NCBI GenBank assembly: GCA_964035015.1 | Contig: OZ035998.1 | Span: 41,664,531 to 41,728,530 of the forward strand | Length of the DNA: 64,000 bases | Source of the DNA: Corallium rubrum | Taxonomy: Eukaryota > Cnidaria > Anthozoa > Scleralcyonacea > Coralliidae | Direction: 5' to 3' | Shown here: in pieces, positions 16,856 through 59,908 of the stretch | Position numbering within the stretch: position 1 is the first letter of the stretch | Layout: each line of letters opens with the position of its first letter | Notes under the pieces: model-generated | Told to the model about the DNA's origin: nothing | Databases searched by the model: none | The model's input: the letters and a program-made list of their open reading frames with translations, nothing else | Made by a program: the position numbers and the translations under genes

Positions 16856-16869
16856 AGTATTTGCATGTA

Positions 16870-17195
16870 GACCAGGCGGAGAAGGGGGGAATGGTCCCCG
16901 ACGGGGAAATTTATGAGACCAAGTGGACTTGGTCAACTTTGGGGCGCTGAGTTCGAAAATCGTTGGTATACAGGCTGTGGGCGGGGCCTTCCGCCTCGTT
17001 TTCGCGTTTAAACCTCGATTTGGTGCAAAAACGATATCTGCTCGATTGAAGCGAACAACAATGGAGAATTTGTTTAATCTGGGCACCTTTAGCAATTTTT
17101 GGGTGCTGAGTGCAAAATTCGATTGTATTCAGAGGATAAACTGGGCCTTCCGCCTCGTTTTCACGCATTACAGCATCGTTTTTACGCATTAAAGC
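16870..17195 (+). repeat. Left terminal inverted repeat of outer transposon
   Basis: Almost exact reverse complement of 37039-37358. CCTTCCGCCTCGTTTTCRCG occurs twice within it, and the inner edge has an extra partial copy of CGTTTTTACGCATTA compared with the right end. Its spurious open frames mirror those of the right TIR. Confidence 0.93.
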
Positions 17196-17349
17196 CTCGT
17201 TTTGGTGAAAAATAACGATCTGCGCGTGATCGAAATAAAAAAGAAGGACAACTTTGACGAATAAGAACAACCTTAGTAAATTTGAGGTTCTAAATTCAAA
17301 CTTCAATATATATATAAGTATAATAAAATTTCGAAAAAATATAAAGTTG

Positions 17350-19616
17350 TTAATCCTCATCATCTTCCATAACGTCATCAAAGTCGTCTTCAAGATCACT
17401 GTTTTGCACGAGATCAAACTCATCTTCATCTTCTACTTCTTCCTGGCCAATCAACAATTCACTAACATCGTCAGGGTAACAAACACTGCTCCAGATAACT
17501 TCTCCTCTTTCGTCCCAACCATGATTTGTGGGCTCATCTAGATCAAGGATCAAGTGATTAGCTTTCCTGAAAATCGATGCAACATAATTTGCACGGATTA
17601 TATGAAGCTTCAGATTGGTTTCACAAGGTGGCAAGAGGCTTAAGTCGATTACTTTCTTCTCTTTGTCAAACTTCTGCAAGAAGATCTTATGTCGTAGTTT
17701 GTTCGCTGATGACATCGTTTGGTTTCCATATAACGCACAAACGAACTTTTCTAAGCCTTGTAAAATGTGATCAGGAACCTGAGGACTACTGCCTAGCTCA
17801 GCAAACAGACGAATATATTCTTGACGTTTCAGCATCGCTTTCCAGAAAGCTTTCTTCCCTTTCCTGAAGAAACTGGAAACGTAGTCATTACCAGAAAAAG
17901 CGTGTAAACCGATGAGAGCTTTCCTTTTCTCCAGATCCAGTGTTGAGGACGTCACATCTATACTTTTCCTAGCTTTGCCTGTTCCGTTGTCGATTAGAAC
18001 TTTAACAGCAAAACCATGCGCCACAAACAGAGCAAGGATATCGATGTCTCCTGAATGAGATCGAATCATGATAGTATCTCCAGGAGGTACGTTCGCAGCG
18101 TGGGCCAAGGCAACTAGCTTTGTGTCTGCTTCTTCGTGGTCACTAGCTAAATATTCGATAACTGATACTTCATCCCTTGTTATTTTCGTACACTGAGACT
18201 TGTTGGAAAAGAAGATGGTTTTACTTGACAGATCATTACGCCCTTCTTCAATTGCTTTCTGAATAAGATTGATAAGCATTTCCTTGTTTTCCCCATTACG
18301 AAGAAAACTTGTGAAATCGTGAGGTACCTTCATGTCAGGACTGGTTAGGACATACCGCTCGCTTACACCTCTTGCCTGACGTTCTCCACCTTTGATGCTA
18401 TTGTCCTTGTACGTATCACAAACTATGAAGATAGTGGTGTACTGAGAAGGAACAGTGGCCATTATTCTAGATGCCATTTCTCTTATGGTTGATCCAGTGC
18501 CAACCAAACTACGTATTGCAGCGACAAGATCTATCAAGTATGTTCTCATTGTTGAAGCGGGTGGTAGTGCGTCATGGTTTACAATGCTTAGGTCGCTCTT
18601 GGAGGCGTCATACAATTTGCTTTTGACTGTCTTTCTTATTGCACCATCTTGTGTACTTAGCGGGATTGAAACAGGTGCAAGGGGGAAGCACAGCACTTTC
18701 TCAAGATCAACCCCTGTCTTGTGCTTGTTAGAATAAGCAACTAACATTCCCAAGATATCTCTCTGAAATGTGAGTTCTTTTGTCTTTCCCTTGCTCTTTA
18801 ACTTGGTTTTAACGGCCAAATTCTTGAAGGTCTTGAGCGTCTCTCTCTTGATTGGGCTAAAAAAAATCTGTTTTGGACGATTCTGTTGATTCCGTTGTAA
18901 TTCTGCCCTGAAATTCATCCATTAGCTCCTTTCCTCTTGATTCAAGAGTGAGTAAGCAGTTGCGTACATTCTCTGGAGCTGGATACCCCGATACCAAATT
19001 AAACAACTCGTCTTTGTCAATATCAGGTTGGAAGGGATTGATGAATTGTGTCCGCAATACGACCATGATTTTTTCCACCATCTTATTCGACTTTAGAATT
19101 TCACTGCTTCGCATACATTTTCGTGGATTTGACATTGTAGTGGACATTCCTGATAGCTCCATTAACGATTCGACAAACTTGGTTTGATATGGTCTATTCA
19201 TGACCCATGCATTTTGCGACAGTATTTTCTTTTGCAGCAAACTGCGTGACTCCACCTGAAAAACAAAGAGAATGGTAATATACATATGAGGTATATACGT
19301 AGGGCGTTCGTCACATGTAAGGAAAGATTGTTGAAGAAGATGCCTGGCATTAATACAACAGGATTTTAAATTCATAAATATGAAATTACCTGCAGTCTTT
19401 GCGTTTCTCATGTAACTTTGTTCGCCTGCCATGTCGATTGACTGTCCTATGCCAAGTTGATTTCTCCGTACGGACAAACCAAGATCTTCGATCTCCTGTC
19501 TTGCTCCTGGGTGAGTGCTGTCAATACATTCTAAGCCACTGACATAATATGTGCCATAGCGAGCATAATGAACCCGATTGGTATAGCAAAGCACAAAGGC
19601 AAAGATTCTTTCCACA
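17350..19616 (-). pseudogene. 3' half of nuclease-like transposon gene, split by CACTA element
   Basis: Minus-strand coding pieces run from 19616 ([14 protein letters not shown]…[10 protein letters not shown]) across a plausible intron (donor at 19390/19389, acceptor near 19259) into a 522-aa open frame ending in an acidic tail at 17350. Recognisable family motifs are [66 protein letters not shown] and [19 protein letters not shown]. Acidic residues in DHEEAD and GDID are candidate metal ligands of an XPG/PIN-like nuclease fold (inference). The frame is broken at least twice: near VAK/WVMNRP (about 19205) and at an eight-T run at about 18861, where seven would restore it. The N-terminal half lies beyond 33791. 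Dead copy. Confidence 0.8.
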
Positions 19617-19830
19617 CACTGTAAAAACTGATTGGTCAAAACAACCATTTTTTTTGGTTGCAACCATTGTCAAATGGTCATTTTGACCAATTGTTTAATT
19701 AGTTAGTCGAATATGACCAATTAAATTTGGTTTCCTTGACCACTACTTAATTGGTCGAAAAAATTGGTCATCTTTCGACCAATTTAAAAAGGTTATTATA
19801 ACCAACTGTTTATTGGTCATTTAGTATTTT
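19617..19830 (+). repeat. Left end of CACTA element with subterminal repeats
   Basis: After the terminal CACTGTAAAAA come at least eight copies of TTGGTC or its complement GACCAA, several arranged as small palindromes (AAATGGTCATTTTGACCAAT). Such clustered motifs bind the element's own proteins in plant En/Spm; a similar role here is inferred. Confidence 0.85.
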
Positions 19831-20689
19831 AGTTGAGTGTAACTTTGTTACTGCCATATTTAATTGTTATTTTTAGTCGCCAGAAATACGCTTGTTGGAA
19901 ATGCGTCTTTTTTTCCGGCAATTTTACGAAATAATAAAATTCAAAATGGCGACCATTTGAAGTTCGAAACACGCTTTTTGTTTTGGTGGGTTTTTTTTCA
20001 CTTTAAAGTTACCACGACGTTTCAGGGTCGTCTATCGAGGAGCACGGAGTGGATAATCTTACATTGTTAGTATTTAAATATAAATACTTATAACTATATA
20101 AAGTTATATCTTTTGATCAAGCATGGTGATGGTCAGGAAATGATTCCTAAATTATTTCAAATATGAATCAATCAATCCGATGGTCTCTGAAATCTGAATG
20201 GTCTAGTATTAAGGTCTACATCCTATTCCTACATGACATTGAAGCTTCAAATAATAACAGATATTGACTGTTTGACCTGGAAACATGAATGCCATGGAAA
20301 CTGCTCAGTTGGTCTGTTTAAGAAATTCTTCTACAGTGTATATTTAAATGTTCATTCTGGACAACATTTATTGCCAATAGGCTGCGAAGATAACTTGGAA
20401 ACTTTCTTTGCACAATAAAGATTTTTCCAGTTGGATTGGACAATGGACGGTAAATATAAGCTAGTGTAAAACATTAAAGCACGGCACGATATCTATTTAT
20501 CAGAACCTTAACATTAGACACAATGGCAAGAGATGTAGCCAGAGCTTTCTAGTGGCTAGGAGACTCTGTGGAGACTAAACTAAGGTAGTTGACATGTGGC
20601 TATATGATCAACCACCACTCATAATAGAAAACATACTGTACAGAAATCATTGATTGTCACACACACTGTCATATCTTTGGAGTGCAACC

Positions 20690-20940
20690 ACCTATCACAG
20701 AATAGGCCTAAAGTTACTTTATTAAGCCAAATGTGCCCTATTTTATAGTTTTACTCTTTCTAACGCCAGATGATTTTTACTCGTCAAGGGGAAAGCCTTA
20801 TACAAACAATATGGCGTTGTGTGTTGTTAGCCCATTAAGCTGCAGTACACCCTACTTTTTTGTTTTACTCTGGCTAACACCAGACAATTTTACTCGTAAA
20901 GTGGGGAGACTAGCCCCTTTAATGCGTCAATAACCCCAGT
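20690..20940 (-). repeat. Two tandem copies of the GTAAAATCGTCTGGC dispersed repeat
   Basis: Downstream of the transposase stop, two units carry TTTTACTC…CTAACGCCAGA…TTTTACTCGTCAAGGGG, the reverse of the dispersed motif that forms the minisatellite at 44.4 kb. 19831-20689 and 20941-21079 show nothing else recognisable. Confidence 0.7.
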
Positions 20941-21079
20941 GACTAAACTTTGACATTGGTCTATAAAATATATTAAATTAATTTATTTCAATTGTATTAA
21001 CTGGTCAAAATTTTGCAGTTTCATTTAATTATTAAATTCTTCATCAGTCATGGAAACTATATTTACAATAATACAGTAC

Positions 21080-24000
21080 TTATAGTGTTTGTGGAGGTAG
21101 GTATCTTGGTGTAACATACAAAACTCCATTTTGACAGGAAGATGCCTTTGCTGTGTGCATGGGAAGGTACATCTTTAACATTGCTGGCTCAAATAGAAAA
21201 GCTTGTGTATCAGCAGGTCTTCGGACTTCATAAGAATAGAAATGGCATGAGAATGTAATGGTCGTGAACCTCTTCAGAAGGAAGTAAATCTTGTCTGCAG
21301 CAAATACAAATATTTCTTGAATTGATGCAAAAACAGGAAGATCATTCAGACTTCCAGCATGTACCACAGCACCAACTCGGTATTCTGTGCCATGAACTGA
21401 AATTTTTCTCTGCCTAAAATGAACAAAAATAAATTTCTAAATACCATGGTACTTGACCTTGAAGACCATATATACTTACAGTAACTTGACCAACTGTGAC
21501 TTGATATTCACTTGATACAGTATATCAACTCTGGGACATTTGACTTGGAATACTTTACTGTTTCATTATTTATGTATGCTTACTTGTGCAAGATATCAGG
21601 TTCAGCTAGAGTTGGTTCCTTCTCTCTCAGTAGTTGAAAGTATTCACAGTCTCCAGCAACAACTTGTTTTCCAGACTCTAGGAATTTATAAGGAGAAATC
21701 ATATTTAACCCCAAGGACTGTTCCCTTGATGAGTAAAATCGTCAGAGCAAAATGCTAAAGTTAGGACATCGGGAGCATGGGGGCACTTGTGTGTTAAAGG
21801 GTTAAGTAACCCATAAGTAAAAAAAAACTAAATGCAGTTTCATAAACTTACCTATTTTAGGTTTCTTTGCAAGAGGGCTTGCATTGCCACCACATTGAGC
21901 ATTCATCAGATAACAGCTGCGAGTCTGGTGGCGCTCTCCCAAACTGAGAGCAACATTGGTAAAATTGCCCATATATGCAGCCAATCTTTTGAAATAACTG
22001 TGCTTAGCTTCATATCTCATGCACCAACTGCGCACCATAGGACCAAACCTTGAATATTTAGAAAAAGTTGTAATTAACAAATTGTATTTTTCTTAGATAA
22101 TCTATCAGATGGGTAGTGTACAAAAGACTCTTGATTGTAAAGATCATGCAAACCTATGCAGTAACAGTGTTTTTATCTGTTATAGGTTTCCGTGATCACT
22201 ATAATCAGGAGGCTATGATCTTTGCTGCAGCTGACGCTGAACACCCTGGGCCCACGAATATATTATATTCGTCTTTTCGACCAGCTACCAGTCTTGGCCT
22301 TTTTGTTTGCTTTTTTGTGTAATTGCAACATTTAAAGAAAAAAATATTATACTGTACTTGTAAATATGTGCAGGATAGTGCACCAAGTAGTGCATCTTGG
22401 GAATAACTGAGCGTCCTGGGTAGATGCAGGTAAATTGCCACAAATACTCCTCGATATATCCTTCTAGAATGCCAAGGTCATTCAGACTTGCCACTGGTGA
22501 AAATATGATATCAATAATCTTGAGCAGCAGCAAGAAATGCAGCCATCTTTCATCATCACTGGGAACCGAACTACCAATAACGAGAGGAAGAAACTTCCCC
22601 AAGCACCACATTTGTCCTGCTATGTTCATATATGAAGAAAAAAATAAATGTCTGCTCAATAGATAATACAAATTATTAGAACCAAATACTTATGGACAGG
22701 ACACATCCCTTTGACATTTGCCATAACTGCTGCAGAAAATGGTGACTCGGAAGATATAATTATCCCAAAAAACACTGTCTTACCTTTCTGCTTAAGATGG
22801 TTTGTTTCATTCTTTAGAGTTTGGATGGCAATGGGTGATGGCTTATTTTTATCATTGAAATAACCATAGTCGAAACAGCGCATCCTTTCATTCAACTGCT
22901 CAAGTGTAAAATATTTTTCTTTAAATATAAATTCTTTGAGCACTTCCTTGCATTCATATTGGAGAACGCCTTCAAGGACATCGTGCATGGCATCACCAGG
23001 CAAACCATCAACCACATGATAGTAACGTGAGTTACAAAGAACAGAGAGTCTGCAAACGCCATACGTTTTACTCAGTCCCTGATCCTGGTTGATTAGTTGG
23101 CATTGGCGGTTGTGACCTGCCCGTGTGCGCAGGGTGAAACACTTTTCCATAAACTAAAACAAACAAAAAAATAATAGATTTATAAAATCCCTAATATACT
23201 CTCCATTCTGGTTCCATATTGTTTTATGGTTATAGTGAAAAATACTGAACAAGTGCAGACCATGTTTACTTAGCTTTTGAACAAGTAAGTGTACTTGTCA
23301 TTGAAATAAATTGGCAAATTTTTACAAATGGAAGAACATGCATGCAAATAAAACTTGTCAATAAAGCTTGTCTTTATTGTAACCGGCTTAATTTGTATTC
23401 ATTCGGGAGAAAAAAATACTGAACAGATGCACTCTTGCAAAACATTTGGTCTATTCGTGGGGAAAAAGTGATTCCACCAAAAAATCCATCTTTAATTTAT
23501 TACCATGCGCTTGATTTCCTCTGTGTTCCCCATGCAATGCCGGCACTTCAGGTGTGCACCAGAACCTTCTTTGAATCCTCCAATTAGCTGAGAACCAAGA
23601 TTGTCTCCAGAAACCATCACAATTGTTCCAGCCAAGGACAGTGGCTCACCTTTAACAGTAAACTGGTAACCACCATCCTAAAATAATATGTTGAGAATTA
23701 ATAGGATTAAAATAAAATATTCTAATCAATCTTTGATCAGGATAGCAAAGCTCTACAGTTGAACATGCTCGAACAACATTACTGACAACTTGTTCGTAGT
23801 GGGCAGCACAACCTTGTTCACGCCTGATATCAACCAGGAAAAAGTTGTTGATTTTTTCAATTTTAACGCTTGTAATCAAGTAGAAAAAACAACATGCTAG
23901 ATTGGGCACTGATATAATTGTTGCATAATTATATTTTACAAAGTACAGTGTACTTACTTCTTCAAGATACCCAAGGTCATTCATGAACGGTTCCAACAAG

Positions 24001-26964
24001 GCATCGATACCATACTGTTTGATGACAGGTGTTGTTGCAATCAACAGCAGCTGAATTGAATCAAGCTGTGACCGGTACTTGGGATCAATGTTGCCCAGTG
24101 TGTAGTAAACAACCCCTAAAATAACAATAACAGTAATCCAAATAAAGAGCATTTTTTATCTGAATTTAAATACATTATTTAGCTGCCACAATACTATTTA
24201 GGGGCAAGGGTATATGAGTGCATTTTCTCACTTAGTTCCTTACCTAATTTGTGCTTCCCAGCCTTGCTTCCAAGTGGGTTAGCAATCTCAAGCTCATCAT
24301 AGTACAGCATTAGCTGAATGGCACTTGGATCACGAGAGAACAATGGATGTGTCTTGAATAAATGCCCATCACAAACATCCTCAATCTGACCATTGTTGTG
24401 CTGGCGTTGATGACCATTCTGAACCTAAATAAACAAATTTTATGTCAATTCTGATTTAACCTACAGGCAGTACCAGCAGTACCCTACTACTACTTGCAGT
24501 ACCAGCTACTACTGACAAGTAAAATCATCTGGCAGTATACAGTCTATATAAACATCACCCTCGTCGTATACAAACCACCTCAGAATACAACTTGTTACAC
24601 GTTGAGGAAAATACACAAAACACTTATGTAGTTTACCTTATCACAATACCTGTATCTACATATATACGAGAACTTCATGCCTATCTCACAACAACTACTC
24701 TGTAGCTTAGTGGTGTCACAGAGCGCTCAGAATCGCAGGGGCATAGGTTCTATTCCTACCGGAGGACCTAAGTTGCATTTTTTGCAATGTTCCCGGTTAG
24801 GCCTAAAAAATTGTATATAAATTATATACATATCACCCTCGTCATATACCAACCACCTTAAAATACTAAAGTAGTTAATTCTTTGAACGTTTTCATGGCG
24901 ATAAAGTAATATAAATAAGTTTTGTGGAAACACCACGTAAAATATTTCTTTGCTAGCAAAGAACTATTTTATGTGGTGTTTCCACAAAACGTATTTATAT
25001 ACTAAAGTAGGTCACATACTGTATGAGTGTATTGCCAGCTAATGGGTTAAATAATACTACATTCTTAGAGGTGATTCATAAAAACATACAGTCCTGAACG
25101 ACAACTGGTCATGAATGTACCATAGTCAACTTTACCTCTTGAAGTATTGAGTCATTGTTGAGCATTTGTTCCAAGGATTCAAGAATGGGAATGTACATTA
25201 TTTCATCATCTTTCAAGACCTCCTTGTGGCTTGTCCCAGATCTTCTCTTTACAGAACTGTGCCCAATAGTAATTCGCTGAGGTTGCTACAACATTAATGC
25301 AATCATTAACAAAAGTGTAACATTAACATCAACCCTGATAACAGTATCCCCTGACTCATACAGTGTAATTAAACTTTCTGCTGTGGTTACAGGCCTGTGG
25401 TTATAGATCTGACATGACTTAATCGAACAAGGCAATAGTGCAATACCATGAATTATAGTCCATTTGAACATTAACCCTAGCTCCAACCACATCGTAACCC
25501 TAGGAGGTTTGGCAAACAGCAAATTTACCATGATCATGCCACAATTGCATTCCAAAAAATAACACTTTGATTACAAGCTATATACGCTATTTACATAATA
25601 AATAGTTTTTGAGATTGAAAAGAAAGTGTTATTTTCTGCTGGCTGAGGTACTGTACAAGGTTGGGAGCCCGATTGCGAATCAGGTTAAGCTAGCTCATGT
25701 TGACTAATTGATGCTTCTGCAAGCTTGACAATAACTTGCACCCAATAAAGACATTAATTTTAGAATGTTAGTTGTAGTGAATTCATACTTACCACTAGTC
25801 CAAAGTGACTTTTAAAATATGCATTTTGTTTGTACTGTGTGGACACATGCTCAAAGGGATTTGAGATTGGATTTTCTTCTTCAAAAAGTTGACTAAGTCC
25901 TGGAACTGCATCAAAATTAAGCCCAGCATTATTCAAACAACTTTGTAGGCCACTCTTGAGAGCTTTAACTGTTCCTCGAACTAGCTCAGTCGAATCTTCG
26001 ACAATATTGTCAAGACATTTTTGTGTTAACATATTTGTTTCTTTGGTTTTTAAGATGAATTTTGCATTAAGATCTCTCATTGCTTGAACAGGATCCTCTT
26101 CCTGTTGGGCAATATTCATTTCATCACCAACTTCATGTCCACCACCATGCATTGGTTGATCTTGGGGATTGATATCAATCTCAGGAGTGTTGGCTAACTT
26201 AAGATTTATGTTACCATGCTTTCGTCTCAGATGACTTTTATACGAGTTAATCTATGAGAAAAATTAAATAAATTATATGCATTACAGTATTATTAGAAAG
26301 GATCTGAAACGCCTCAATTGTAAAAAATATCACAAGATGGCACTGATATGTTTTGTTGACTAATACAGATGTAGCGGTGTAGCCACAGTTCAATTTGTAT
26401 AAAATTTATGATCGAGGTAGCCTGCATACCCAGACTGGAAAATGTAAAATATTTTTAAACATCTTTTCATTTCAGACAACACATACTTATTCTTTGCTGT
26501 AATCATTAATAATTGAAAACACGCTTGCCAAAATATAAATACTTCAGGCTTTTTTGGAAAATAATGAGAATCAATATATAAATAATTAAGTCATCCCAGC
26601 TAGGGGAGCTAGCCCCCCTTCATAAATGAAAACCATTTCTGCTATTAAACTGAGTCAGCTCAAAAACCCTTCATAGTATAATAATGAGGCATGGACACAT
26701 GACACATCACACATGTGACCTGCATATTTACATGGCAATTAATCACTTTGAACTTTATAGTTTCTATACAAAACAGATATATAAAAATAATTATAATCAA
26801 TACGAATTCTTCATTGAACTAACCTTAGTGAAAGTATCATGGCAGTCAGTTACTTCGCATGTCAGATGTATTCTTGGGTCGTTTTGATGCACTTGTACGA
26901 GATGATGCTGCATTTCGAAAATGCACGTAGCGAAGAACGTCGAACACACTTGACAACGAAGCAT
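21080..26964 (-). CDS. CACTA/EnSpm transposase with N-terminal C2H2 zinc fingers, 11 exons
   Basis: Minus-strand exons: 26964-26824, 26251-25793, 25285-25136, 24424-24244, 24115-23958, 23677-23504, 23153-22784, 22616-22358, 22048-21852, 21677-21584, 21413-21080. Total 2,517 bases, 838 aa. All introns are GT-AG and no stop interrupts. The first finger has C4, C7, H20/H21 and H26. The second (C36, C41, H54, H59) is completed across the first intron, which supports that splice. Family landmarks follow in order: YYDELEIANPLGSK, YYTLGNIDPKYRSQLD, the C-x2-C pair KCRHCMGN, then DGLPGDAMHDVLEGV (Asp475 and Asp479, possible catalytic acids), LGKFLPLVIG, FGPMVRSWCMRYEAKHSYFK and a C-terminal HGTEYRVGAVV region. 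It should cut and join the element's CACTG ends in the nucleus. An in-frame ATG at 27000 would add 12 residues. It is divergent from the SAM gene. Exon boundaries are my prediction. Confidence 0.87.
24658..24826 (+). repeat. tRNA-derived SINE in transposase intron
   Basis: It has the order seen in the copies at 47735 and 58461: TATATAC.GAAC, a tRNA-like head (CTGTAGCTTAGTGGTGTCAC), a B-box region (ATAGGTTCTATTCC), then TTGCATTTTTTGCAATGTTC and GGTTAGGCCTAA. A 42-base imperfect direct repeat (CATCACCCTCGTCRTATAC) lies on both sides, at 24546 and 24824. Confidence 0.8.
24905..25010. repeat. Hairpin repeat in transposase intron
   Basis: Arms AGTTTTGTGGAAACACCACG and their complement flank a smaller perfect palindrome, TTCTTTGCTAGCAAAGAA. 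A compact foldback directly downstream of the SINE. Confidence 0.85.
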
Positions 26965-27255
26965 GGTAAGCGAATTTTTTTGTCGCTGTTGGTTGCACAA
27001 AAAAGCCAGGCATTAATAAAACCAGCAAAGTCACAGATACTGAAGATACTTGATCATGATCGCTCAAGGATCGCTCTGGTGTCCATGGTGATGTTTTGAG
27101 TGCTTAAACGTCATTGGTCGAATTTGTGGTCACATGACATGAATGGCGTCTTGAACGTAATTTGAGTATTCCGCGTCCATTCCAGAGGACGCTTCAATCG
27201 AGTAAGACAGTCCAAATTTTCGCTACTTTTTTCTTGAGTTCTGAACTATCATATC
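26965..27255. promoter_or_regulatory. Divergent promoter shared by the two CACTA genes
   Basis: Only 291 bases separate the two predicted start codons, which point away from each other. No clear TATA box is seen. ATTGGTCGAA at 27113-27122 matches the element's own terminal motif (ATTGGTCGAA appears in both subterminal regions). Transposase binding here could couple expression to copy number, as in maize Spm; this is inference. Confidence 0.6.
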
Positions 27256-30200
27256 ATGGCAATTTCAAGAGAATCTTCTAGCCAGGATGTTATTCATTTT
27301 CTGAAGAGCAAGAACTTAAGCGAATTGGCAGCTGATTTTGAAGGTAAATAACTCCAATAATTGGCGAAATGTCGAGCGTAGTTGAATGTAAAATATGTTT
27401 GTGAATTACATATGCTTTATGTTTGTGAATTAAGTTTGCTTTTACGGCTTTAGGCCTTCTCTATTAGGGCTTTAGGCAATATCGCTTGTTTATTGTGTTA
27501 ATATAGCTGTTTAAATAAAGGTAATCACGATATAAATTCTACATTGAACACGTGCAAATTATCGGTAATAAGTTCATTTTGAATACCCCGCGCTTGAAGC
27601 GCCGGTGGAAACGTGTCCTGTATATATATTAATTTCCTTAAAAATAATTTAATGGAATAAAGCAACTTATTTATGCTTCTTTTATTTACAGCAAACCAAG
27701 TAGACGGGGAGGACTTTTTTGCACTTGATATGACTGATATTTATCAGATGATCCCTCGCTTCAAACTACGAAAAAAGTTTCTTACTCTCTGGAGTGAAGT
27801 CACTTCCCAGACCCAGGTCAGAATCATGCTTAATATATTATATATAAAGTTTGTTTTGTGGGCTCGTGGCTTTAGCCTTTTATATAGAATCGTATCTAAC
27901 GAGGAATTCAAGTGGCAATAGAGTGAATTTCTTATTTATAAGTAAAACTTTAAACTAGTCATTTATGTTTTTCCACACTGCATAGTCGAGCAGTTTGGGG
28001 TCACAAAACAGTGTTCAGGAACTTCAGGGGCATATTATAGTAAAAGCTGGTCTTTATAGCCTTGCTCAATGGCTTTGTCCACAGACACAAAGTGTAGCTG
28101 CTAATTAGTTTTTTTGTGGTTAACAGAGTGAGAGTCCTGAAGTGAATGACACAACATATCCCGAGTCAGAGAAATCAATGTTGTCAAGTCAGTCGAGCCA
28201 TGCAGACCAGGATCTGGGTACCAGTTTTAATACTTGTTCTAATTTGCTGTGCAGCAGCCCAGAGCTAGAGTCACCGGAATTTGTTTGCGAACTGAAATTT
28301 CTTCGTGAGGATTGTGTGGTCTCAGACTCTGCATCATCTAGCAAAGCCAAAAGCTCAAAATGTCCAGCAAGGAAGTCCCTGGATTTTAAAAGAGTGACAG
28401 AAAGTCCATCTGCATCTACATTAAGTGCAACAAAGTCAAAAAAGGTAAAATAATACAACCCTCTGAAAGGTACTTTTGCGGCTTTATTATACTCATTTTG
28501 AAATCAATGGTGATACTCGCAATCTGATTGGCTGAAAATAGTGCGATTAATGCCCAAATCACACTATTTTGGGCTGTAATCGCATCATTTTTGTAATCGC
28601 ATCATTTTTTCATCATTTTGTTTCATTTCTTGTGTGATTTCAAAATGGATATGATAAAGAGGTAATTGAACTTCGTGTCGTGCAATTTTGGTCTGAAATC
28701 AAACGCGTGATTATTGCACTCCACTCAGTTCAATTACCATTATTAATTAATACAGTATATTACTGTATAAGTGCACATCTGAAATTTAGATACTGTAGAA
28801 TGCATTTTCTTACCCACTAGCCCTGTCCAATGATACGTACATGTCAAGTAGGGCAACACACCCAAAAACACCCTGGTTTAGTATCTTACTTTGTCTAGCG
28901 CCAGACTATTTTAATCGTCAAATTAATTTTTCCAATCATGTTTTTTGTCTCTATTATACAGATGTCTCCACGTCCATTGGAACCGGCACGTGATTGGCTA
29001 ACTCAGTTTTGTTTACCAACAAGGGTAAGTACTGTAAAACTTAATGTAAATATTGTTTAAATAATAATATTCATTTTTTTAAGATCTACACTGTAAGTCA
29101 CTGTAATATGGATTAAAGAAATATCTAATGGCTCGACTTTGAAAATTACAGCTAAAAGCGAGTCAATGAACCACTATATGAAAGTAAATATTACCAGGGT
29201 TAAGTCACGTTGGCCTGAAAAATAGAGAAAAATCTTCTCGACGTTTCGAGCGAAGGCCCTTCGTCAGGAAAGGGCCTTCGCTCGAAACGTCGAGAAGATT
29301 TTTCTCTATTTTTCAGGCCAATGTGACTTAACCCTGGTAATATTTGGGTTTCAACTGTGGCCGACGCTGTCCTAGAAGCTTTTAACTATATGAAAGTAAA
29401 GTTGTGAAAAGTGCAGTAGGATAACATTTTATATATTTATTATTTTTTACTGTAGTGGGAACCAACAGTTGAGCAAGGATTGAGAAAAGGGGATCTCAAT
29501 CCAACAGAAAAGAGTGCCCTTGTACGACAACTTGTCTCCTCGATATTGGCTCACACCGACTCACCAAGCTGTCATGATAGAAATCACATTTCATTATTAC
29601 TTGTGGAGAAGTATCCATTTTTAAAGGGGACCTTTGGTGCAGGACATGTACGTATATTGATAAGTATTTTGTGTTTACAGCCATTCCATGGTGACTCGTG
29701 TGACCAAGTCACAAAATTTTAGGGTTAAAAGGGTTATTTTTTATTACATCTAATTTAGCAAGGATCGGGCTTACTTTATTACAATGAAGCCCCTGGGGAT
29801 ATAGTCAAGTTAATATATTTAATTCCTAATAATTTTATTTAATGCCGTCGATTTAATAACTTATTGTCATGTGACTCGCGTGACTGCCAGAAATGTGAAA
29901 ATTCCAATTACTGGGATTCTGATTAATTTTCCTGGCAACTTATTGATTTTATTTAATTTTAACCTTCATAAAACATATAGTGGAATGTAAGGCTATGGCA
30001 CTCCAGTGAAATTTTAGAAAAATCTTTTTTGGTTTAACAGATAATGTTACAAGTAAAACATGACTTGTGTGACATAAGACTGTGACTTGTGTGATGAGTG
30101 GCGAATAACATAACAAAAAGCCTGTTTAAATGACAAAAAGTCAATGGTTTTGTTTTCTCATTATTTGTTGGAGCCATTAATGCCATTTGCAATAATAATT

Positions 30201-33196
30201 TAGAACAAGATGGACAACTGGAAGCATATTTTTAGAAATGCCACAATACCCCAAGACCTCTATGAGAATTTGTATAAAATGGCTTTTAATAGTGTTAAAG
30301 CTGCCAAATCAATATTTGAAGAATGAATTTGAATTAAATACATCTATTTAACATTCTGTGTTGATTTGTTCCTTGATCCACTCCATTTGACTGATATGAA
30401 CACCTCAACAGCTTTGAATTCTATTCTTGTGACTCGTGTGACATGACTTGCGTGACGAACTTGAGGGTGATTTTTCTCTGAAACTACTGAAAATATTTTC
30501 CTAGACTTTGGGGGATTGGTTTCATTAACTAAGAGTACCAAGTTGTGATAGGCTTAAAGAAGTTGTTCAAATTGACAGGAAATAAAAATACTTTATGTGA
30601 AAATATTGTGACTCACGTGACACTAAAATGAGGGTGTTTTCACTGTGGGCTAACACAAAGCCGATACCTCATTTTGAAATTTAGAATTTGAAATAAGTTA
30701 TTAAATAGCAATGGCAAGTTGAATACATAAAATAATGAAGAAATTTAGTTTTGATACAAGAAATAGGACACTATTCTTAAAAAGTAACAATATTTGTTCT
30801 AATCAATGCATAATTATCTATGTTCTTATTTCTGTTCCCACAATGCCCGTGGGTAATTGTGGTAATTTTTTTTTCACATTCCAGAAGGTATTGTAGCATC
30901 CAAAAATGGTATTGTAGGTGTTATTATGTTAATTTAATTTTTTTCAATAAGGTGTCATTTCTGTGGAATGGCTGTTTCGTCTCTACTCTCTTGTTATAAT
31001 AAGAAGCAGTTTTTTCCTTTGTCGACATCACTTGTCAGGCCAACAAAGGGAAAAATTGCTTTGTGTGAACAAATTTGACTAGGGGTAAATTAAACAGCCC
31101 TAATACCTTACTTGTCAGTTGTCAAAGTATGATCACACAAGTCAGCGAGGCTTTACGCAACATGCAGCTATTCAATTTTCTTAATTTATTTATAATTATA
31201 TGGTTTTTAGTAAACAGTTAATTACCATGCATAACTTTGGCTGCATGTATCACATATTAAAATATATCTGTTCTTTTGCAGCAATTTTGGGCTAAAAAGA
31301 TTCAAGAACGGGTACTTAACTTAAGGAGACGATCAGCAAGGAATGAGAAAAGAAAATTCTTGGAAGAAGGCATTGTCATTCCAAAAGGCAAACCTGGTCG
31401 TAAGAAAACCAAGATTGTATCAACATTGCCATCATTTCCTGAAGGAGAGACTGAAGAGACGCTGGAGGAACAAAGAAAGCAATTGGTCCAAATGTCTAAT
31501 CAAGGCTCACAAGACCTGACAAGAATTAAAGTGTTGATGGACAATACTTTTGCCAAACGAAGGAGAGATGTGCTACTTAACGACACACGCGTTTGGATGA
31601 TTGTCCGCGATTATCCTTTCTTGAAGAATAGTAAAGGAGTTGAGGTAAACTATTCTCACTGGTAATTTAGATGTATTTCATTATGGTATGTCATTACAGT
31701 GGGTATAAAGTTATCGCTTTAACTTGTCAAGGAAATGGTATTGCAGGTAATGACATGTGATGATGATAAAAACAAGCATTGAAGTAAAATCGAAGTTTGT
31801 AATATTTTTAGTTGAAAGCAGAATTGGGAAGAATTTTGGAGAAACCAGAGGTTATTAAAGACATAAGAGGAAGATGGAATCTCAACAAACCAAAGATGCT
31901 TTCAGCTTTAAGAAAGTCACAAGGCAAGGAAATCCACAGCATTCTTGCAACTATTGAAGATTGCACTGCTGAAGATGAAAAGGGTATGTTATATATTAAT
32001 TTCTTATTGGAAAATTAACTTTTTCACTACCAGAGGTTCCCTTTTTATGGTTCTGTAGAAGTGAAATCCTTGTGGAAATACTGTAGGATTGTCAACTAAA
32101 CATCATTCATGCTGTCATGTAATGTGTCTGTCAAACTACTAAAAGTACCGGTATAACAACAAAGTTTGAACAGAAGAATTATAATTTCATGGGTTTTGCA
32201 CAAGCAATTTTTAGATGAACATGCATAATTTATTCTGAAAAGTGTTTTGACTTGTATATTTTTTGTTGTTTAACCCATTTACTGGCAGTACTCTACCATT
32301 GTCCAGTAAAATCGACATTGTCTGGCATTAGACAGTAAAATACTAAAGTAGGGCACATCGGTTCATTGCCAGTCTAATGGGTTAAATCATGGTTTATTAT
32401 AGGTGCAAAACTTAGTGATGACAGTAATTATAGCACTGATAGGTTTAAAAATTCGAAATTATTCTTTTCGTTATAAACGAGTGTTTGGAGGGTATAATAA
32501 TTAGTGAATGTATTATATTTGCAATTTTAGAGGCAAAAGACAGATGTATAATGGCTTCCCTTCCCTATGCACTGGGAGACAGACAGACCCACCAAAACAA
32601 GACAGGCGAGCTTTTTTGGGAGATTCTTGATGTAAGTTTTGTTCCTTGTTACTGTAGTGATAATATTTTTCTTTGTGATATAGGTTAAGCATTATTTATA
32701 TTTTTAAAGGCTGTACCGGTAATGTTGTCTTGAGACTGTAATGCAATGCCATTTTGAACCATGCATCATACCATGTAACATTTAGCACCTAGTGTTTCAA
32801 GTTTGCAGCATTCAGTTTTGTTATCCATGCAATTGCTTGAATAGTACTCTAATTTGTGTCTTTGTATACAATTAATAGGATGATACAGTGGGTGAAGTGG
32901 AGAAGAAAGTGGCGGCGTGTACATCACCAAGACTGCTGTCAACCGGATCACTTGGCCAGCTACACACATTGGTGCTCGTTGCTGAAGGAATGGTGGTAGC
33001 TAAGTTTAAAAAAATAGGCATTTTAAATGCAGTAATTAGTTTGCTTGCAGCCTACTATACTTTTAATGCCCAGTATCCACGAGGTACAACTGGGCACAGC
33101 AAGAATGTGTTTGTTTTTTTGGATCATATATTAATATCTGAGCGAAAGACTGCTGTGCCAGTGAATGTTGAACATTTCCTTGCAATGATGAAGTAG
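27256..33196 (+). CDS. SAM-domain accessory protein of CACTA/EnSpm element, 9 exons
   Basis: Exons: 27256-27343, 27692-27816, 28127-28444, 28962-29024, 29456-29647, 31282-31644, 31812-31983, 32531-32631, 32879-33196. Total 1,740 bases, 579 aa, with all junctions GT-AG and in frame. Residues 8-70 fit a sterile alpha motif (VIHFLKSKNLSELAADFE…LRKKFLTLW), split by the first intron. A Ser-rich linker and a basic patch (KPGRKKTK, possible nuclear signal) follow. Later come LLVEKYPFLKGTFGAGH and, further on, VRDYPFLKN. The last exon has YPRGTTGHSKNVFVFLDHIL. Animal EnSpm elements often carry such a second protein, analogous in position to plant TnpA; its activity is unknown. SAM domains oligomerise, so bridging of transposon ends is a reasonable guess only. 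The large 29648-31281 intron has no other gene. Confidence 0.83.
29189..29384. mobile_element. Hairpin retro-insert with hammerhead-like core and 16-bp TSD
   Basis: An almost perfect hairpin (arms about 75 bases, 29186-29345) plus a short tail is flanked by an exact 16-base direct repeat, ACTATATGAAAGTAAA (29173-29188 and 29385-29400). On the minus strand it holds CTGACGA, a short GGGC-CTTC-GCTC stem and GAAAC (29243-29267), the order of a hammerhead ribozyme core. The long duplication points to retrotransposition, possibly by a Penelope-like element. It lies in an intron of the SAM gene. Confidence 0.75.
32272..32390. repeat. Dispersed AGTAAAATCG/GGCATTAGACAG repeat copy
   Basis: AACCCATTTACTGGCAGTAC…AGTAAAATCG…GGCATTAGACAGTAAAATAC…AATGGGTTAAA: one complete copy of the dispersed repeat bounded by matching AACCCATT and AATGGGTT ends. 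Related copies lie at 21725-21800, 24465-24545 and 28830-28925. Confidence 0.7.
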
Positions 33197-33489
33197 GACT
33201 AAAGTAGTTTCCCAATGCAATGAGGAATTATAATTATAGAACATTTTAATGTCAGCATGCATGCATGATAGTTCTTACTTAATATTTTTAAGCTAATGTT
33301 TAAAGAGCCATGCAGGCTTATTTAAACCTTTCGTGTTAATATATTTATTTAAAACTTTACCCTCATTTATATTTTATTATATAATGTATTTGTATTTTTG
33401 TAATTTATTTGTATAGCTTTATTTGTATATTTCCAATTACTAATTACATGTATATATGATCAATGATGTGAGGCTCACAAATTTTCTTC

Positions 33490-33790
33490 ATTTTAATGTA
33501 GTGTAGGTTGTGAAAACTAATTGGTCGAAATGACCAAAGAAAATTGGTCACCTGGATGCATCTGAGAGAACCAATTAAAATTGGTCGTTTTAACCAATAA
33601 AATTAACTATTAATTAATTGGTCATTTCAACCAATAAAAATTGGTTAAAACAACCAAAATCTTTGGTTGAAATAACCAATTAATTAATGGTTAATTTTAT
33701 TGGTTAAAACGACCAATTTTAATTGGTTCTCTCAGATGCATCCAGGTGACCAATTTTTTTGGTCATTTCGACCAATCAGTTTTTACAGTG
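33490..33790 (-). repeat. Right end of CACTA element with inverted subterminal duplication
   Basis: The last about 90 bases (33690-33777) recur in inverted order at 33522-33608, each arm carrying GGATGCATCTGAGAGAACCA or its complement and several TTGGTC motifs. The terminus ends TTTTTACAGTG. 33197-33489 between the SAM gene and this region is AT-rich without features. Confidence 0.88.
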
Positions 33791-36515
33791 CATGAGCATT
33801 CTCAGATCATAATCATTGGTATTGATGGAAAAGTGTAATTTCTGCTGACGATCAATAACTCCATATACTTTGCCCAATACTGGGGTGTTTTTCCAAATTC
33901 TCCGTTCATACATTTGGCTTTCTGTATTTGGCATTGCTTAACATATTCTTTAACAGAGTCGTCGTTAAGAATGTTCGTTAAACTCGTTGCTTGCGCGGGG
34001 TTACTTTGCATGGGCGAACTCCTCAACTTTCACTGGCATAGTCGGTAAATATTGTTCTGTAAAGAGCCTTTCCAATGCTTCGGAAAAAGCCTCGTGAACA
34101 AGCCAACATCGATTGTAGTGCTTTCCACTCATCACTCCCGTGATGCTTCCAGAGCTGCACAGACCCGCTTGAAATATGACATCTTCGAATCCACTGCCCT
34201 CCACGAAACGCCCAATAACTGCAAAAAAGGTCATCATTGCATGAAAATCGCCTAGATGAATTATTATGTCGGACCATGCATCTGGATTGTTCCAAACCAC
34301 ATGAAAAGCCTTGATTGTAGCTCCCACGTCAAGGGTGATGTGAGCGTGGGACATGTTGGATTGCCTCGTTAGCTGTCTAGATTGATGGAACATTTCTATG
34401 ATGGTGGAGTATTTGGTTATTGGGGAAGAAATAGGAGGCAAGTATGTCATCAGGGTTGCTTTGCTATGAGCCTGTTGAAAACGACGCACGATCCAACCAA
34501 CGAATCTGGGGTTTGTCTGATTGGCTGAGTTTAGATACCGCACTGATTGCCATAACAGCAACAGCTTTGAACAAAACATCTCCGCGTCAGAAGGAGCTGG
34601 TCTGGTCTGTACTTCGGCAAATGATGGTGGTTCTGCTTTTGGGTTGATTGCCACTCGCTTATCAGCATTATCTCTGGAGAGTTGGATCGATCGTCGCTTT
34701 GACTTGGGAATAGTTATATCTTCTTGTCTCATCACAGCTGCAGCAGAATGCTCTTGAAACGCTATGCCTGGTGTAGTATGAATTGAACCAGCACCAGATG
34801 CAGTCTCAATATTGCGATCAAAGTTATCCCACCAGAATATCGTTGATATCTTAAAGAAAAAAAATTATGCAGATTAATTTTCAAGTTATTTTCAAGACAA
34901 AAATTACAGAAGCAAGATTTTTTTCTCGTGAATTTAGCAACGATTCTCAATTCAAATAGGTCTTGTACTAATGTGGTGAATGCCCTTCTCGAATATTATA
35001 ACGTCTAAAACGTGCAAAATTTAACAAATTTACGGTGGAGTTTGTTATTCACTTAGAGTTCTGGAACTGAGCGCGCATCATCATCGTTGTCTGTACTCTT
35101 ATTGACAACAGTAATTAAACCAATCAGATTGCGAGTTTACTTTCAATCATTGTAAAAACTGAAATAGAAAATACTTACTTTGGAACCATGTGCTACTGGT
35201 TGAAGAGGTAAGTGCAGACCAATAGATTGAAAGTGTTCCACCAGTTCAGCCTGAGCAGTCTCGATTTCATTGATTGCGTCGTATGTGATAGAATGTCCCA
35301 ATCTTGCCAATATAGTTATCGGTAGTTTTTGACCAGTCATACTATGAAGGCCAAGTCCTACTGATGCATGTTTTGGCGTAAGAAATTTTCCCTTTGAGAC
35401 AGCGTGAATGATATCCTGACAATACGAGTCAGTCAGTCGATCCACCCTTTCGGCAGTAACATGATGACTTCCTTTTGGGGACAAAAGTTCCTTGAAAAAC
35501 AATTGCAGAAGCTCTGGATATTGTCGCTCTCTGGAAGACAAACTCTCAACTGTCGGAGGCCACGGAAGTGGACAAGCTTCTTCTAAAAATTTGAAGACAG
35601 ACTCTTGCAGGAACGATGCTGCTCTTTTGATGGTGAATTGTTGGATACATGGAATGGAGAGCTTCTTGAAAGAATTTGATTGTGCAGGCATTCTCTGCTG
35701 ATCACCACTTGTGGGATATGATATTCTGCTTGAAGAAAAACTAGTTGGTCTCCAAATGACTTCATCAGACGTTCTTTAAGCTTGTATCTGCTTTGCTTCG
35801 TTCCAGTATTACCAGTATATCTTGTCATTAGTGTTTCCATCGACAAACATTGCTGCCCTCCTATGATATCATTCTCTACCAAAGAAAGAACTGCATCGTA
35901 GTCCCCGAGTTGTAAATTATCATTAGCACTTTCGGTTGATTCAGTTCTTTTCCTGACGACCCTAGTATATTCTAGATAGCACTTATCGTGCTTTTGAAGT
36001 TCTTTCGCTATTAAATCAGTTTCTGTGACGGCTCTGATCATTTCTAAGTCATTCTGAGCAATAGCTGCTTCTTTAAATGTTCTCTCTGCAGTATCGGTGA
36101 CAATCTTAGACAGTGGCTGGCGTACACCTTTCACCTTTACGTCTTTCTTCTTACAAATCATACAGATATTCGGGAAGAGTCCTCTGGAGCTAGTATCTTC
36201 GGCACTTTGTGATGTATTTCTTGTCGTTCTTTGAAGTTTGCTACTAGAACCTTGATCGTCGTCTTTGCTTGCTTTCCTTTTCAATAACGCTTTGGCATGT
36301 ACAAACTTTTGAAAGCACTTTCGATGGTAGAAATACTCAATTTCTCCCAAATTCTCTGGAATTTTATTGCACTGATCGATGTGATGGTTTTCGCCGCCAA
36401 GACTCTCTCGTATTTTCTTGCATTCATGCAGAGTTTCAAATGTGTTTGGACTTGGTCGAATCAATTTATCACCAGATGTGTCTAGTGAGTCATAGTGAAC
36501 GATACAATCCGCCAT
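33791..36515 (-). pseudogene. 5' half of nuclease-like transposon gene, split by CACTA element
   Basis: It starts at ATG 36515 (MADCIVHYDSLD…). Minus-strand exons run from 36515 to about 35179, with donor AAA-GTAAGT, and from 34849 down to 33791. Motifs typical of this repetitive family are YFYHRKCFQKFVH, ICMICKK, HDKCYLEYTR, GLGLHSMTGQKLP, ARLGHSITYDAINEIETAQAE, FWWDNFDRNIETASGAGSIH, PGIAFQE, LGDFHAMMTFFAVIGRF and KTPQYWAKYME. C-x2-C pairs and an HxxC suggest an N-terminal zinc-binding segment. Frame changes occur near 35690, 34010 and 33845, so the gene was probably already dead. It continues at 19616 on the other side of the CACTA insertion. Confidence 0.8.
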
Positions 36516-37038
36516 TTCTTCCTACACTTTCTTAAAACCTAATTCAGATGAAGTAAATTGAAAAGAAAGTTTTGTTGTTATTGATGAAGAAATAAACATG
36601 CAAATTATGTAGTTTGAAATATGAGATATTTGAACCTTGTTGACCAATGTTGCACATCTGCAACCGATCTTTTCAGTTATCGATATTTCAACCCAGAGAT
36701 CAGTTATCTTGCTATATTTCGATGCCTAAGTAGGCTATAGGCATGCTATTTTACAACTAATAGCAAATAAACTATATATCTATATCGTAAAGGCTTAGAA
36801 AATGCAAAAGGAATTACCTAATTTCCACGGTCGGAACCAAAGCGTCGGCGGCCATCTTTGTTTTCGTCGCCTGATTATATGGTATTACATGAAGTATGAA
36901 TTAATCAAACAGAATTAATTAAGACATGTTGCAGATGCGCTACAATGGTGAACGAAGTTCAAATTATTATTATTATTTTTTTTACTATTTTTTTAAAAAG
37001 TGGTAGCAGATCTGCTACAGGGGTCAATATAGGGTTAA
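36516..37038. other. 5' flank of outer-element gene
   Basis: AT-rich. It contains GGCGGCCATCTTTG near 36848, and presumably the promoter of the dead gene. Nothing else is seen. Confidence 0.5.
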
Positions 37039-37358
37039 AGCGTGAAAACGAGGCTTTAATGCGTGAAAACGAGGCGGAAGGCCCAGGTTATCGTCTGAAT
37101 ACAATCGAATTTTGCACTCAGCACCCAAAAATTGCTAAAGGTGCCCAGATTAAACAAATTCTCCATTGTTGTTCGCTTCAATCGAGCAGATATCGTTTTT
37201 GCACCAAATCGAGGTTTAAACGCGAAAACGAGGCGGAAGGCCCCGCCCACAGCCTGTATACCAACGATTTTCGAACTCAGCGCCCCAAAGTTGACCAAGT
37301 CCACTTGGTCTCATAAATTTCCCCGTCGGGGGACCATTCCCCCCTTCTCCGCCTGGTC
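37039..37358 (-). repeat. Right terminal inverted repeat of outer transposon
   Basis: Mirror of 16870-17195, ending CCCCTTCTCCGCCTGGTC. High identity of the two TIRs despite the decayed gene suggests either recent mobilisation in trans or gene conversion. Confidence 0.93.
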
Positions 37359-37360
37359 TA

Positions 37361-38516
37361 ATGCAATAGCACAGTTTTCTTTTAGGTTTTAATTGTGCTC
37401 ATGTTGGAGTGTTGACTTGTTATTGTCTAAAAACGTCAAACTCAAAGGCGTCAGAAAGTGTTTTGAAAGTATAGAAAGTAACTTTTGACCTCTAAAACCT
37501 CCCTCGCATCTCCATCCCCTCGTTGCATGCATGAGAATAGTCCTATTCAGCATAAAAAAAATTAAGTTTGGCCTTTTTCAAAGCATTGATAGCACTGCCC
37601 AATTGCTAGGACTTGTTCAATTGCCATGAATAGATAAGGCTATCCAGGCTTCTTACAAAGGTCCCCCGATCTTCCCAATCCGTTAACGTCCATCACCCAT
37701 CTGGATCGTCACCGCTCACCACTGTTAACCCCAAGTTTAAAGGAATAGTAAATTTTAGCCCGTACAATATGACGCCATAAATATTGAGGAAAGTGCTTTA
37801 TCAAATCGACCTATAAACCACGTTAGCCTAGTTTTGGAATCACCATAAGTGAATAACTTTAATTATAACATAGCTTTGATATAGCAACGTTTTTGATTGG
37901 CTGTCGTGCGTGCTCCATAACTCGATAACTCGATAACTTACGATTTTTTCGTGCTCTCCCAATTTCCCGCGTGCATCCATAACTCGATGGAGCACGCTAA
38001 ACCATGAGCCATTTCTTAAGTTTAGGGTTATGGTTAGCGTTAGGGTTTTGGTCGAGATTAGGCATATATACTGGAATTTTTAAGAGGAATTGTTAGTCAC
38101 CTGATTCAGGTACTAGTTAGTGTGATGTAGTGCGTTTCCTGCATATCGAACTAACCAAACTGGCGTCTGAAGCCAAAATTAGAGCTAGGTTTGTTTATTG
38201 AAAACGAGTTGTTAATATTTAATTTTTTGTATGCCTCTAGTCATCTCATGGAATCATGGATATTTCAAATTACCAATTTTGAGATAATGCCCCCCTTGTT
38301 GGGAATCCCTAGCTACCATGATGGTCTCATGTTTAAAAGATTTATTCTAGTGGAATCAGTTTTTCTAGAAAATGCGTTGTTATGGTCATTCATGAAAGTA
38401 AGCTGAATTTATTGGAACAGAGATGATTCACTTAGTAAATTAGTCTCGCTATGGCACATGCAATGACCAGCTGTCCAAGTCTGCATGATATGCATGCATG
38501 GAAGCTAAAATCGATT
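37361..38516. other. Intergenic, no gene seen
   Basis: A local inverted repeat is visible at about 37905-38000 (GCGTGCTCCATAACTCGAT… against ATCGAGTTATGGATGCACGC). Otherwise no coding or repeat structure is recognised. Confidence 0.55.
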
Positions 38517-38522
38517 ATTTAA

Positions 38523-38961
38523 AGTGTCTATGAAATAAAAAATTCGTTGGCATTTTTGTTGTTTTATTGTACAGAGGAGCATGGCAGGAGCACTCACTGA
38601 AAATTTCAAGAGAATCTGATGCGTAGTTTTCACGCTATTAACTCTCAAAGTTTGCCATGGCTAGTCGTTCTTGGAAAAAAATTGGGCTTTCGGAAACAAT
38701 GCTTATGACGTACGCAGATGGACAACTATACATAAGAACAATAGATTTCACTATTAATGATCCATCTGCGTACGTCATAAGGCATTGTTACCAAGAAGCC
38801 CAAATTTCCCCAAAACAAACTATCCACGGCAAATTTTGAGAGTTGATAGAGCGAAAACTACGCATCAGATTCTCTTGAAATTTTCGGTGAGTGCTCCTGT
38901 CATGCCCCTCTGTACAATAAAACAACAAAAATGCCAACGAATTCTTCACTTCATAGACACT
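38523..38961. mobile_element. TTAA-flanked foldback element, second copy type
   Basis: 439 bases, arms of about 200 bases in inverted order, ends AGTGTCTATGAA… and its complement, TTAA at 38519-38522 and 38962-38965. The termini match the element at 11919-12399 (AGTGCCTATGAA) although the interiors differ, so they form a family. The inner part has TGACGTACGCAGATGGA on both arms. Confidence 0.88.
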
Positions 38962-39355
38962 TTAAAATAACTTCGCGCTGTGAGTCATAGCGATTTTTTA
39001 AATGCATATTTTTAGCCAACGTATATATTAGTTCCATAAAATATACACTTCAACCATATATATAGTTCAATTGCAAGAAAGCGCCACTGTATATGAATTC
39101 CACAACTGCGCAAAGGTTTCAGTCCTATAATTGTAATAATGGGTAAATTTCATTTTTGCTGATCATTATGGTATACTATGGACGGTGTGGGTAACGTTTA
39201 TTCAGATTTCCTGCAAAAAACAATATTAATGTGACATATTATAGTTATGGAAATTGTTTTAAACTAACACACTAAACGTATTTACAGATAAACCCTGTTT
39301 AAAATCCTATGGAAGATAAAATCAATAACTCAAAACAATTTTTCCAGATCTCGAA

Positions 39356-46502: not shown

Positions 46503-46509
46503 TATAAAA
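46503..46509 (+). promoter_or_regulatory. TATA box of lipase copy 2
   Basis: TATAAAA lies 53 bases before the chosen start codon. Transcription would begin near 46533, downstream of the ATG at 46520, which is why that ATG was rejected as start. Confidence 0.7.
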
Positions 46510-46555
46510 GCCAAGCTGCATGCATTACCACTATCTGTTTGTGATGTTCATCAAA

Positions 46556-58462: not shown

Positions 58463-58691
58463 TAGAATATATACATTTTAAGACCAAACCGGGAGCAGTT
58501 GCGAAAAATGCAACCACACAGGCCCTCCGGCAGGAATTGAACCCACGACCTTGCGATTCTAGTGCAATGCTCTGACCACTGAGCCACGGAGGCCGTCGCC
58601 GAGAGCTCGATCGCGAGTTCTGTATATATAATAAGGTGGTCCTTCACCCTAAACCCTTAGAACATGCTATGTAATCGAGTGAAATGCCCAA

Positions 58692-59844: not shown

Positions 59845-59852
59845 AATAAAAG
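59845..59852 (+). promoter_or_regulatory. TATA-like element of lipase copy 3
   Basis: AATAAAAG lies 57 bases before the ATG at 59909, the same place as TATAAAAG in copy 2. Confidence 0.5.
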
Positions 59853-59908
59853 TGTACAGCCACGCACCTTCAGCTGCAGTTTGCTGTGTTGTTCGTCAGT
59901 GTCAAACA

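What the first reader, a model, noticed from the sequence alone, without database searches (positions are those of the whole stretch)
19617..33790. Apparently intact, autonomous CACTA/EnSpm transposon with two divergent multi-exon genes
Both termini match over 21 bases, a CA duplication is present, and both predicted proteins (838 and 579 aa) stay in frame through 10 and 8 introns. Animal EnSpm copies are usually fragments. An intact copy with its partner gene is a candidate active element.
Basis: partly seen in the sequence, partly recalled or inferred. Interest (0 to 1): 0.88.

Follow-up and report, generated by a model that had tools for sequence, protein, structure and literature searches.

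The report
Young two-gene CACTA jumping gene
A complete 14-kb animal transposon of the CACTA kind, carrying a RAG1-like transposase gene and a divergently transcribed partner gene, has moved very recently in this genome, and its partner gene is found beside the transposase in distant relatives too, so the partner's role in jumping can now be tested.

The parts
19617..33790 (.). Complete CACTA/EnSpm element, 14,174 bp
19617..19647 (+). Left terminal inverted repeat, begins CACTG; 21 bases identical with the right end
33760..33790 (-). Right terminal inverted repeat
19615..19616 (.). Target-site duplication CA, left
33791..33792 (.). Target-site duplication CA, right
19617..19850 (.). Left subterminal array: 10 TTGGTY/RACCAA motifs in 234 bp
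   Evidence: shuffle mean 1.06, 0 of 1000 shuffles reach 10
33501..33790 (.). Right subterminal array: 18 TTGGTY/RACCAA motifs in 290 bp, seven of them paired as 17-bp TTGGTYNNNNNRACCAA; 33509-33787 is a long near-perfect palindrome
   Evidence: shuffle mean 1.21, 0 of 1000 reach 18
21080..26964 (-). Transposase gene, 839 aa; exons 26964-26824, 26251-25793, 25285-25136, 24424-24244, 24115-23958, 23677-23504, 23153-22784, 22619-22358, 22048-21852, 21677-21584, 21413-21080; residues D293, D388, C408, C411, H621, H625, E645
27256..33196 (+). Partner gene, 579 aa; exons 27256-27343, 27692-27816, 28127-28444, 28962-29024, 29456-29647, 31282-31644, 31812-31983, 32531-32631, 32879-33196; SAM domain near residues 7-51, conserved core about residues 185-579
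26965..27255 (.). Shared 291-bp region between the two start codons, presumed two-way promoter; CpG o/e 1.06 against 0.26-0.44 in the neighbouring 25500-26700 stretch
   Evidence: CpG; promoter function inferred
16868..37360 (.). Outer transposon interrupted by the element (long TIRs, 3-bp TSD ATG at 16865-16867 and 37361-37363); six other copies are uninterrupted at the insertion site

Best explanation
It is a full-length, recently mobile, autonomous-type CACTA/EnSpm cut-and-paste transposon of an animal (probably an anthozoan cnidarian, judged only from its closest named homologues). Shown: CACTG ends, 2-bp target duplications, two divergent multi-exon genes, near-identical full-length copies elsewhere, empty sites. 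Inferred mechanism: one shared promoter drives both genes; the transposase, a RAG1/Transib-type DDE enzyme with N-terminal C2H2 fingers and a C-terminal BAH-like domain, cuts at CACTG and inserts with a 2-bp stagger; the partner (SAM domain, long disordered linker, conserved core) cooperates with it, most likely by assembling on the arrays of TTGGTC motifs at both ends and bringing the ends together, much as TNPA works with TNPD in maize En/Spm.
Against: No RNA, no transposition assay, no DNA-binding data. Two of five probed diverged partner loci (C18, C20) showed no transposase within the 10 kb fetched. Many transposase relatives in the genome had no detected partner nearby: of 47 transposase places tabulated, 6 had a divergent partner and 1 a same-strand partner within 40 kb on the scale of one element, and detection is capped. 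The 7 coding differences between window and C39 all change amino acids, and partner vs C18 gives dN/dS 1.32: no constraint after insertion, as expected of a transposon but no proof that these copies still work. Pfam Transposase_21 is below its curated cut-off for the window protein. Fold evidence is from relatives' models, not from the window's own proteins.
Confidence: 0.85

Rival explanations
1. It is a genuine CACTA element but the partner is a passenger or captured host gene without a role in transposition.
For: The core has no recognised fold or known function. Many transposase relatives lack a detected partner. A fish relative (P0141) has a PB1-like instead of a SAM N-terminus and no known link to a transposase.
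Against: Head-to-head pairing kept in families whose proteins share only about 45-80% per exon; partner constrained as strongly as the transposase between families (pN 0.22-0.26, pS 0.70-0.77). A same-strand pair also exists at C295 in a lineage whose transposase is 33% identical. In Orchesella P0089 a SAM domain is fused to a related transposase.
Confidence: 0.12
2. It is a dead or silenced fossil that merely still has open frames.
For: No expression data. CpG o/e of 0.51 inside against 0.73-0.91 in the rest of the window points to long residence in methylated DNA; no constraint among young copies.
Against: 0.12% difference from a copy at another site and empty sites in outer copies that are 98-100% alike (five of six) show very recent jumping; CpG is not depleted at the shared promoter.
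Confidence: 0.3
3. The near-identical copies are assembly duplicates or allelic haplotigs of one insertion, so recent movement is an artefact.
For: C218 (132 kb) and C10 (201 kb) are small contigs; C218's left flank is 97% like C1 and 94% like C310, so it may be an allele or a paralogue.
Against: C39 is a 12.3-Mb contig with a different flank and a different TSD (TG); the window's own site is empty in 6 of 6 outer copies.
Confidence: 0.02
4. The two genes are host (domesticated) genes, not a transposon.
For: Long introns, conserved head-to-head pair.
Against: TIRs, TSDs, copies and empty sites.
Confidence: 0.01

Closest known systems
EnSpm/CACTA within the CMCT clade (EnSpm, Mirage, Chapaev, Transib, Plavaka; as defined in PMC12730594, passages seen)
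   Same: D..D..E with C(2)C and H(3-4)H between second D and E; CA..TG ends; 2-5 bp TSD.
   Different: Two divergent genes with a SAM-domain partner; BAH-like C-terminal domain in the transposase model. I found neither described, but Repbase was not searchable.
Maize En/Spm (TNPA/TNPD; from PMC1636069, parts 1-3 of 6 read)
   Same: Two proteins; arrays of short motifs at both ends (the TNPA-binding repeats of En/Spm are recalled).
   Different: En/Spm makes its proteins from one alternatively spliced transcription unit; here two opposite genes. Ends begin CACTG, not CACTA. The partner shows no recognised similarity to any Pfam family other than SAM.
SmTRC1 of Schistosoma and related animal elements (PMC1636069)
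   Same: Transposase_21-type transposase, spliced, 2-bp TSD, inserted in repeats.
   Different: SmTRC1 is 4.5 kb with CCC ends and a 54-bp TIR; no divergent partner gene reported in the parts read.
RAG1/RAG2, ProtoRAG (BbRAGL), HzTransib
   Same: Transposase core fold and signature order. RAG transposons also pair a transposase with a second gene (RAG1L/RAG2L, abstract of PMC7204232 in listing).
   Different: 11-13% identity; SAM-core partner instead of RAG2; divergent genes, whereas that abstract calls the RAGL genes convergent; 2-bp TSD (5 bp for RAG/Transib, recalled).
Vertebrate SAMD3-like proteins (recalled lead, not tested)
   Same: SAM or PB1 domain plus a core; fish P0141 shares the core over 95% of the query at 23% and has a weak PB1 match (E 0.035).
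   Different: No SAMD3 sequence was compared here.

Membership tests
EnSpm/CACTA (CMCT clade) | DDE triad with C(2)C and H(3-4)H between second D and E | tested here: met
   D293, D388, C408-x2-C411, H621-x3-H625, E645; all seven in 83 of 99 relatives; definition from passages of PMC12730594
EnSpm/CACTA (CMCT clade) | 5'-CA..TG-3' (CAC..GTG) termini | tested here: met
   CACTG...CAGTG; same ends in the C39 copy
EnSpm/CACTA (CMCT clade) | 2-5 bp target-site duplication | tested here: met
   2 bp: CA here, single CA in 5 of 6 empty copies; TG at C39, single TG in 6 of 7 empty paralogues
EnSpm/CACTA (CMCT clade) | Pfam Transposase_21 (PF02992) | tested here: inconclusive
   E 5.1e-4, 19.7 bits, below the curated 28.6; 11 of 50 relatives match at E<=0.001
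EnSpm/CACTA (CMCT clade) | RAG1/Transib-type RNase H core fold | tested here: met
Plant En/Spm type | CACTA pentamer at the ends | tested here: not met
   CACTG
Plant En/Spm type | Both proteins from one alternatively spliced transcription unit | tested here: not met
   Two opposite gene models; RNA not available
Plant En/Spm type | Partner protein binds subterminal repeats | not testable with these tools
   Motif arrays present; binding needs an assay
Autonomous active transposon | Present-day transposition with self-encoded proteins | not testable with these tools
   Recent movement shown, activity not
SAM domain (partner) | SAM fold | tested here: met

The most novel reading that the evidence does not exclude
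An obligate two-protein transposon inside the RAG1/Transib clade: a BAH-bearing, chromatin-reading CACTA transposase that works only with a SAM-polymer partner assembled on TTGGTC arrays. It would be an evolutionary parallel to RAG1/RAG2 that arose independently, and the PB1- or SAM-bearing relatives in fish and other animals (possibly SAMD3-like proteins) would be partners that hosts have taken over.
Probability: 0.25. Interest if true: 0.85.

Novelty: new variant of a known kind. Interest (0 to 1): 0.62.

Why it matters
Complete, young CACTA elements with both genes open give a direct way to ask whether an animal CACTA element moves, and whether it needs two proteins. The superfamily includes the ancestor of RAG1, so a conserved second gene here bears on how two-gene DNA-cutting systems arise. 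The BAH-like domain suggests that the transposase reads chromatin.

Full report
Check of the observation. The element spans 19617-33790 (14,174 bp). Its ends are inverted over 31 nt at 90% with the first 21 bases identical, and CA stands on either side. I rebuilt both genes by hand from GT-AG sites: transposase, 11 exons on the minus strand, 839 aa; partner, 9 exons on the plus strand, 579 aa; no internal stop, 18 GT-AG introns. The start codons are 291 bp apart (26965-27255). The gene models hold against homologues: P0001 (Dendronephthya) matches 40% over 99% of the transposase, its frame and that of P0003 run colinear across the exon junctions, and P0100 (Nematostella) aligns to the partner from the SAM domain to the C-terminus. 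P0001 itself lacks the second D and the CxxC.

Copies and age. The window is G000:C8:41664531-41728530 of a 474-Mb, 312-contig assembly. A query with the left 1 kb gave 48 matches (40 of 109 candidates scored): four at 96% or more (window, C218, C39, C10) and 44 others at 69-87%, mostly about 100-200 bp of the terminal region. C39 carries a full-length copy (8377925-8392325) with 17 substitutions and 11 indel events against the window, one of them a 196-bp insertion in transposase intron 8; the transposase has 5 and the partner 2 amino-acid differences, no stops. C218 matches 99.77% over 11.9 kb up to the contig end; its transposase protein is identical, and the part of its partner that is present has 3 differences. 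C10 is internally deleted or rearranged: its left part matches at 97-99%, and partner exons 7-9 lie about 20 kb away. The flanks of all four differ.

Empty sites. The window copy lies within an exon-sized open frame of another transposon (16868-37360, long TIRs, TSD ATG). Its TIRs differ by one 1-base gap in the first 265 columns and 6 substitutions after that. The genome holds six other long matches to the outer copy (100, 99, 99, 98, 98 and 92% in the 1-kb query). All six run straight through the insertion point without the element; five read a single CA, the most diverged reads AA. At C39, seven of seven paralogues in a tandem array lack the element; six read a single TG and one AG. For C218, C1 and C310 carry related left flanks (97%, 94%) that continue without the element; its right flank is not in the assembly, so allele or paralogue cannot be told. 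So the 2-bp TSD and the ends are proven, and the window copy moved after the outer family had spread. One caveat: had the composite moved as a unit, the order could differ, but the empty sibling copies still place the insertion within the outer family's short history.

Is the partner part of the machine? In the genome the partner gives 77 exon matches (75 of 350 candidates scored), which I condensed into 34 places. In the 10 kb upstream of five diverged partner loci, three (C6, C108, C25) have the transposase head to head; C18 and C20 do not; 14 other loci already held gave 0 hits. From, C162 is another diverged divergent pair, and at C295 a 33%-identical transposase and a 30%-identical partner lie 2.2 kb apart on the same strand. 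The transposase search scored only 54 of 638 candidates, so absence of a partner beside many other transposases is not established. Between families: transposase pN 0.177 and 0.212, pS 0.761 and 0.774 (737 and 663 codons; C6, C108); partner pN 0.221 and 0.263, pS 0.704 and 0.771 (464 and 397 codons). C6 shows 10 of 11 transposase and 8 of 9 partner exons without a stop in the matched pieces; C108 shows one stop in each gene's matched pieces. Synonymous sites are saturated, so only 'much less than 1' can be said (the one computable ratio is 0.13). Among young copies the sign is absent: all 7 coding differences with C39 change the protein, and the partner against C18 gives dN/dS 1.32 over 206 codons. 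Selection between but not within families is what a transposon shows whose proteins are tested only when it moves, and it applies to the partner as to the transposase.

Ends. TTGGTY/RACCAA occurs 10 times in the left 234 bp and 18 times in the right 290 bp, against 21 in the 13,650-bp interior and 67 in 49,826 bp of the rest of the window; 0 of 1000 dinucleotide shuffles reach either count. The diverged C6 element has a similar array next to its transposase 3' end. The right end is a near-perfect palindrome, 33509-33787. These arrays are the best candidates for binding sites; this is inference.

CpG. CpG o/e is 0.51 inside the element, 0.85 in the outer transposon on both sides and 0.73-0.91 elsewhere, but 1.06 between the start codons with 0.26-0.44 at 25500-26700 and 0.33-0.36 at 27900-28500. 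This looks like a long history of methylated gene bodies with a protected promoter (inference); in a copy this young it must be mostly inherited from earlier copies.

Mechanism. Shown: ends, TSD, genes, signature residues, recent jumps, conserved pairing. Inferred: shared promoter, DDE cut-and-paste by a RAG1-type enzyme, partner binding and end synapsis. Membership: it meets the tested features of EnSpm/CMCT; it does not meet two features of the plant En/Spm type (CACTA pentamer, single transcription unit), so it is filed under the former only. Novelty: a new variant, because the divergent SAM-core partner was not found in print by the searches named; Repbase/Dfam could not be searched, and a match there would reduce it to a new member.

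Noticed in passing
16868-37360: Outer transposon with >300-bp TIRs, TSD ATG, several long minus-strand frames without confident Pfam match; at least six other copies, up to 100% identical over 1 kb. Young and unidentified; Academ-like only from memory.
   Followed up: partly
29174-29400: Fold-back (76-nt arms, 99%) inside a partner intron, flanked by a 15-bp direct repeat CTATATGAAAGTAAA at 29174-29188 and 29386-29400; also present in the C39 and C218 copies, so it came before they spread. No Rfam match.
   Followed up: partly
G000: Many single-exon EnSpm-type transposases, 30-37% identical to this one, with open frames of 600-900 aa, a separate lineage in the same genome; e.g. C20:4024116-4026245, 729 aa without stops.
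   Followed up: no
G000:C295:197325-202111: Partner-like and transposase-like frames 2.2 kb apart on the same strand, a possible older tandem arrangement of the pair.
   Followed up: no
P0089: Springtail transposase with its own N-terminal SAM domain (E 3e-6).
   Followed up: partly
P0141: Fish protein with the partner core and a weak PB1 match; possible link to SAMD3-like proteins (recalled).
   Followed up: no
C39:8380638-8380832 (= window 22315): 196-bp insertion in transposase intron 8, present in C39 and C10, absent in the window and C218.
   Followed up: partly
38518-38966: Another inverted repeat, 185-nt arms, 86% complementary.
   Followed up: no
41031-41762, 46508-47452, 59840-60808: Three similar long plus-strand frames that look like tandem lipase-type genes (judged by eye from the translations).
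   Followed up: no
2191-2260 (+) and 58522-58593 (-): Two tRNA matches.
   Followed up: no
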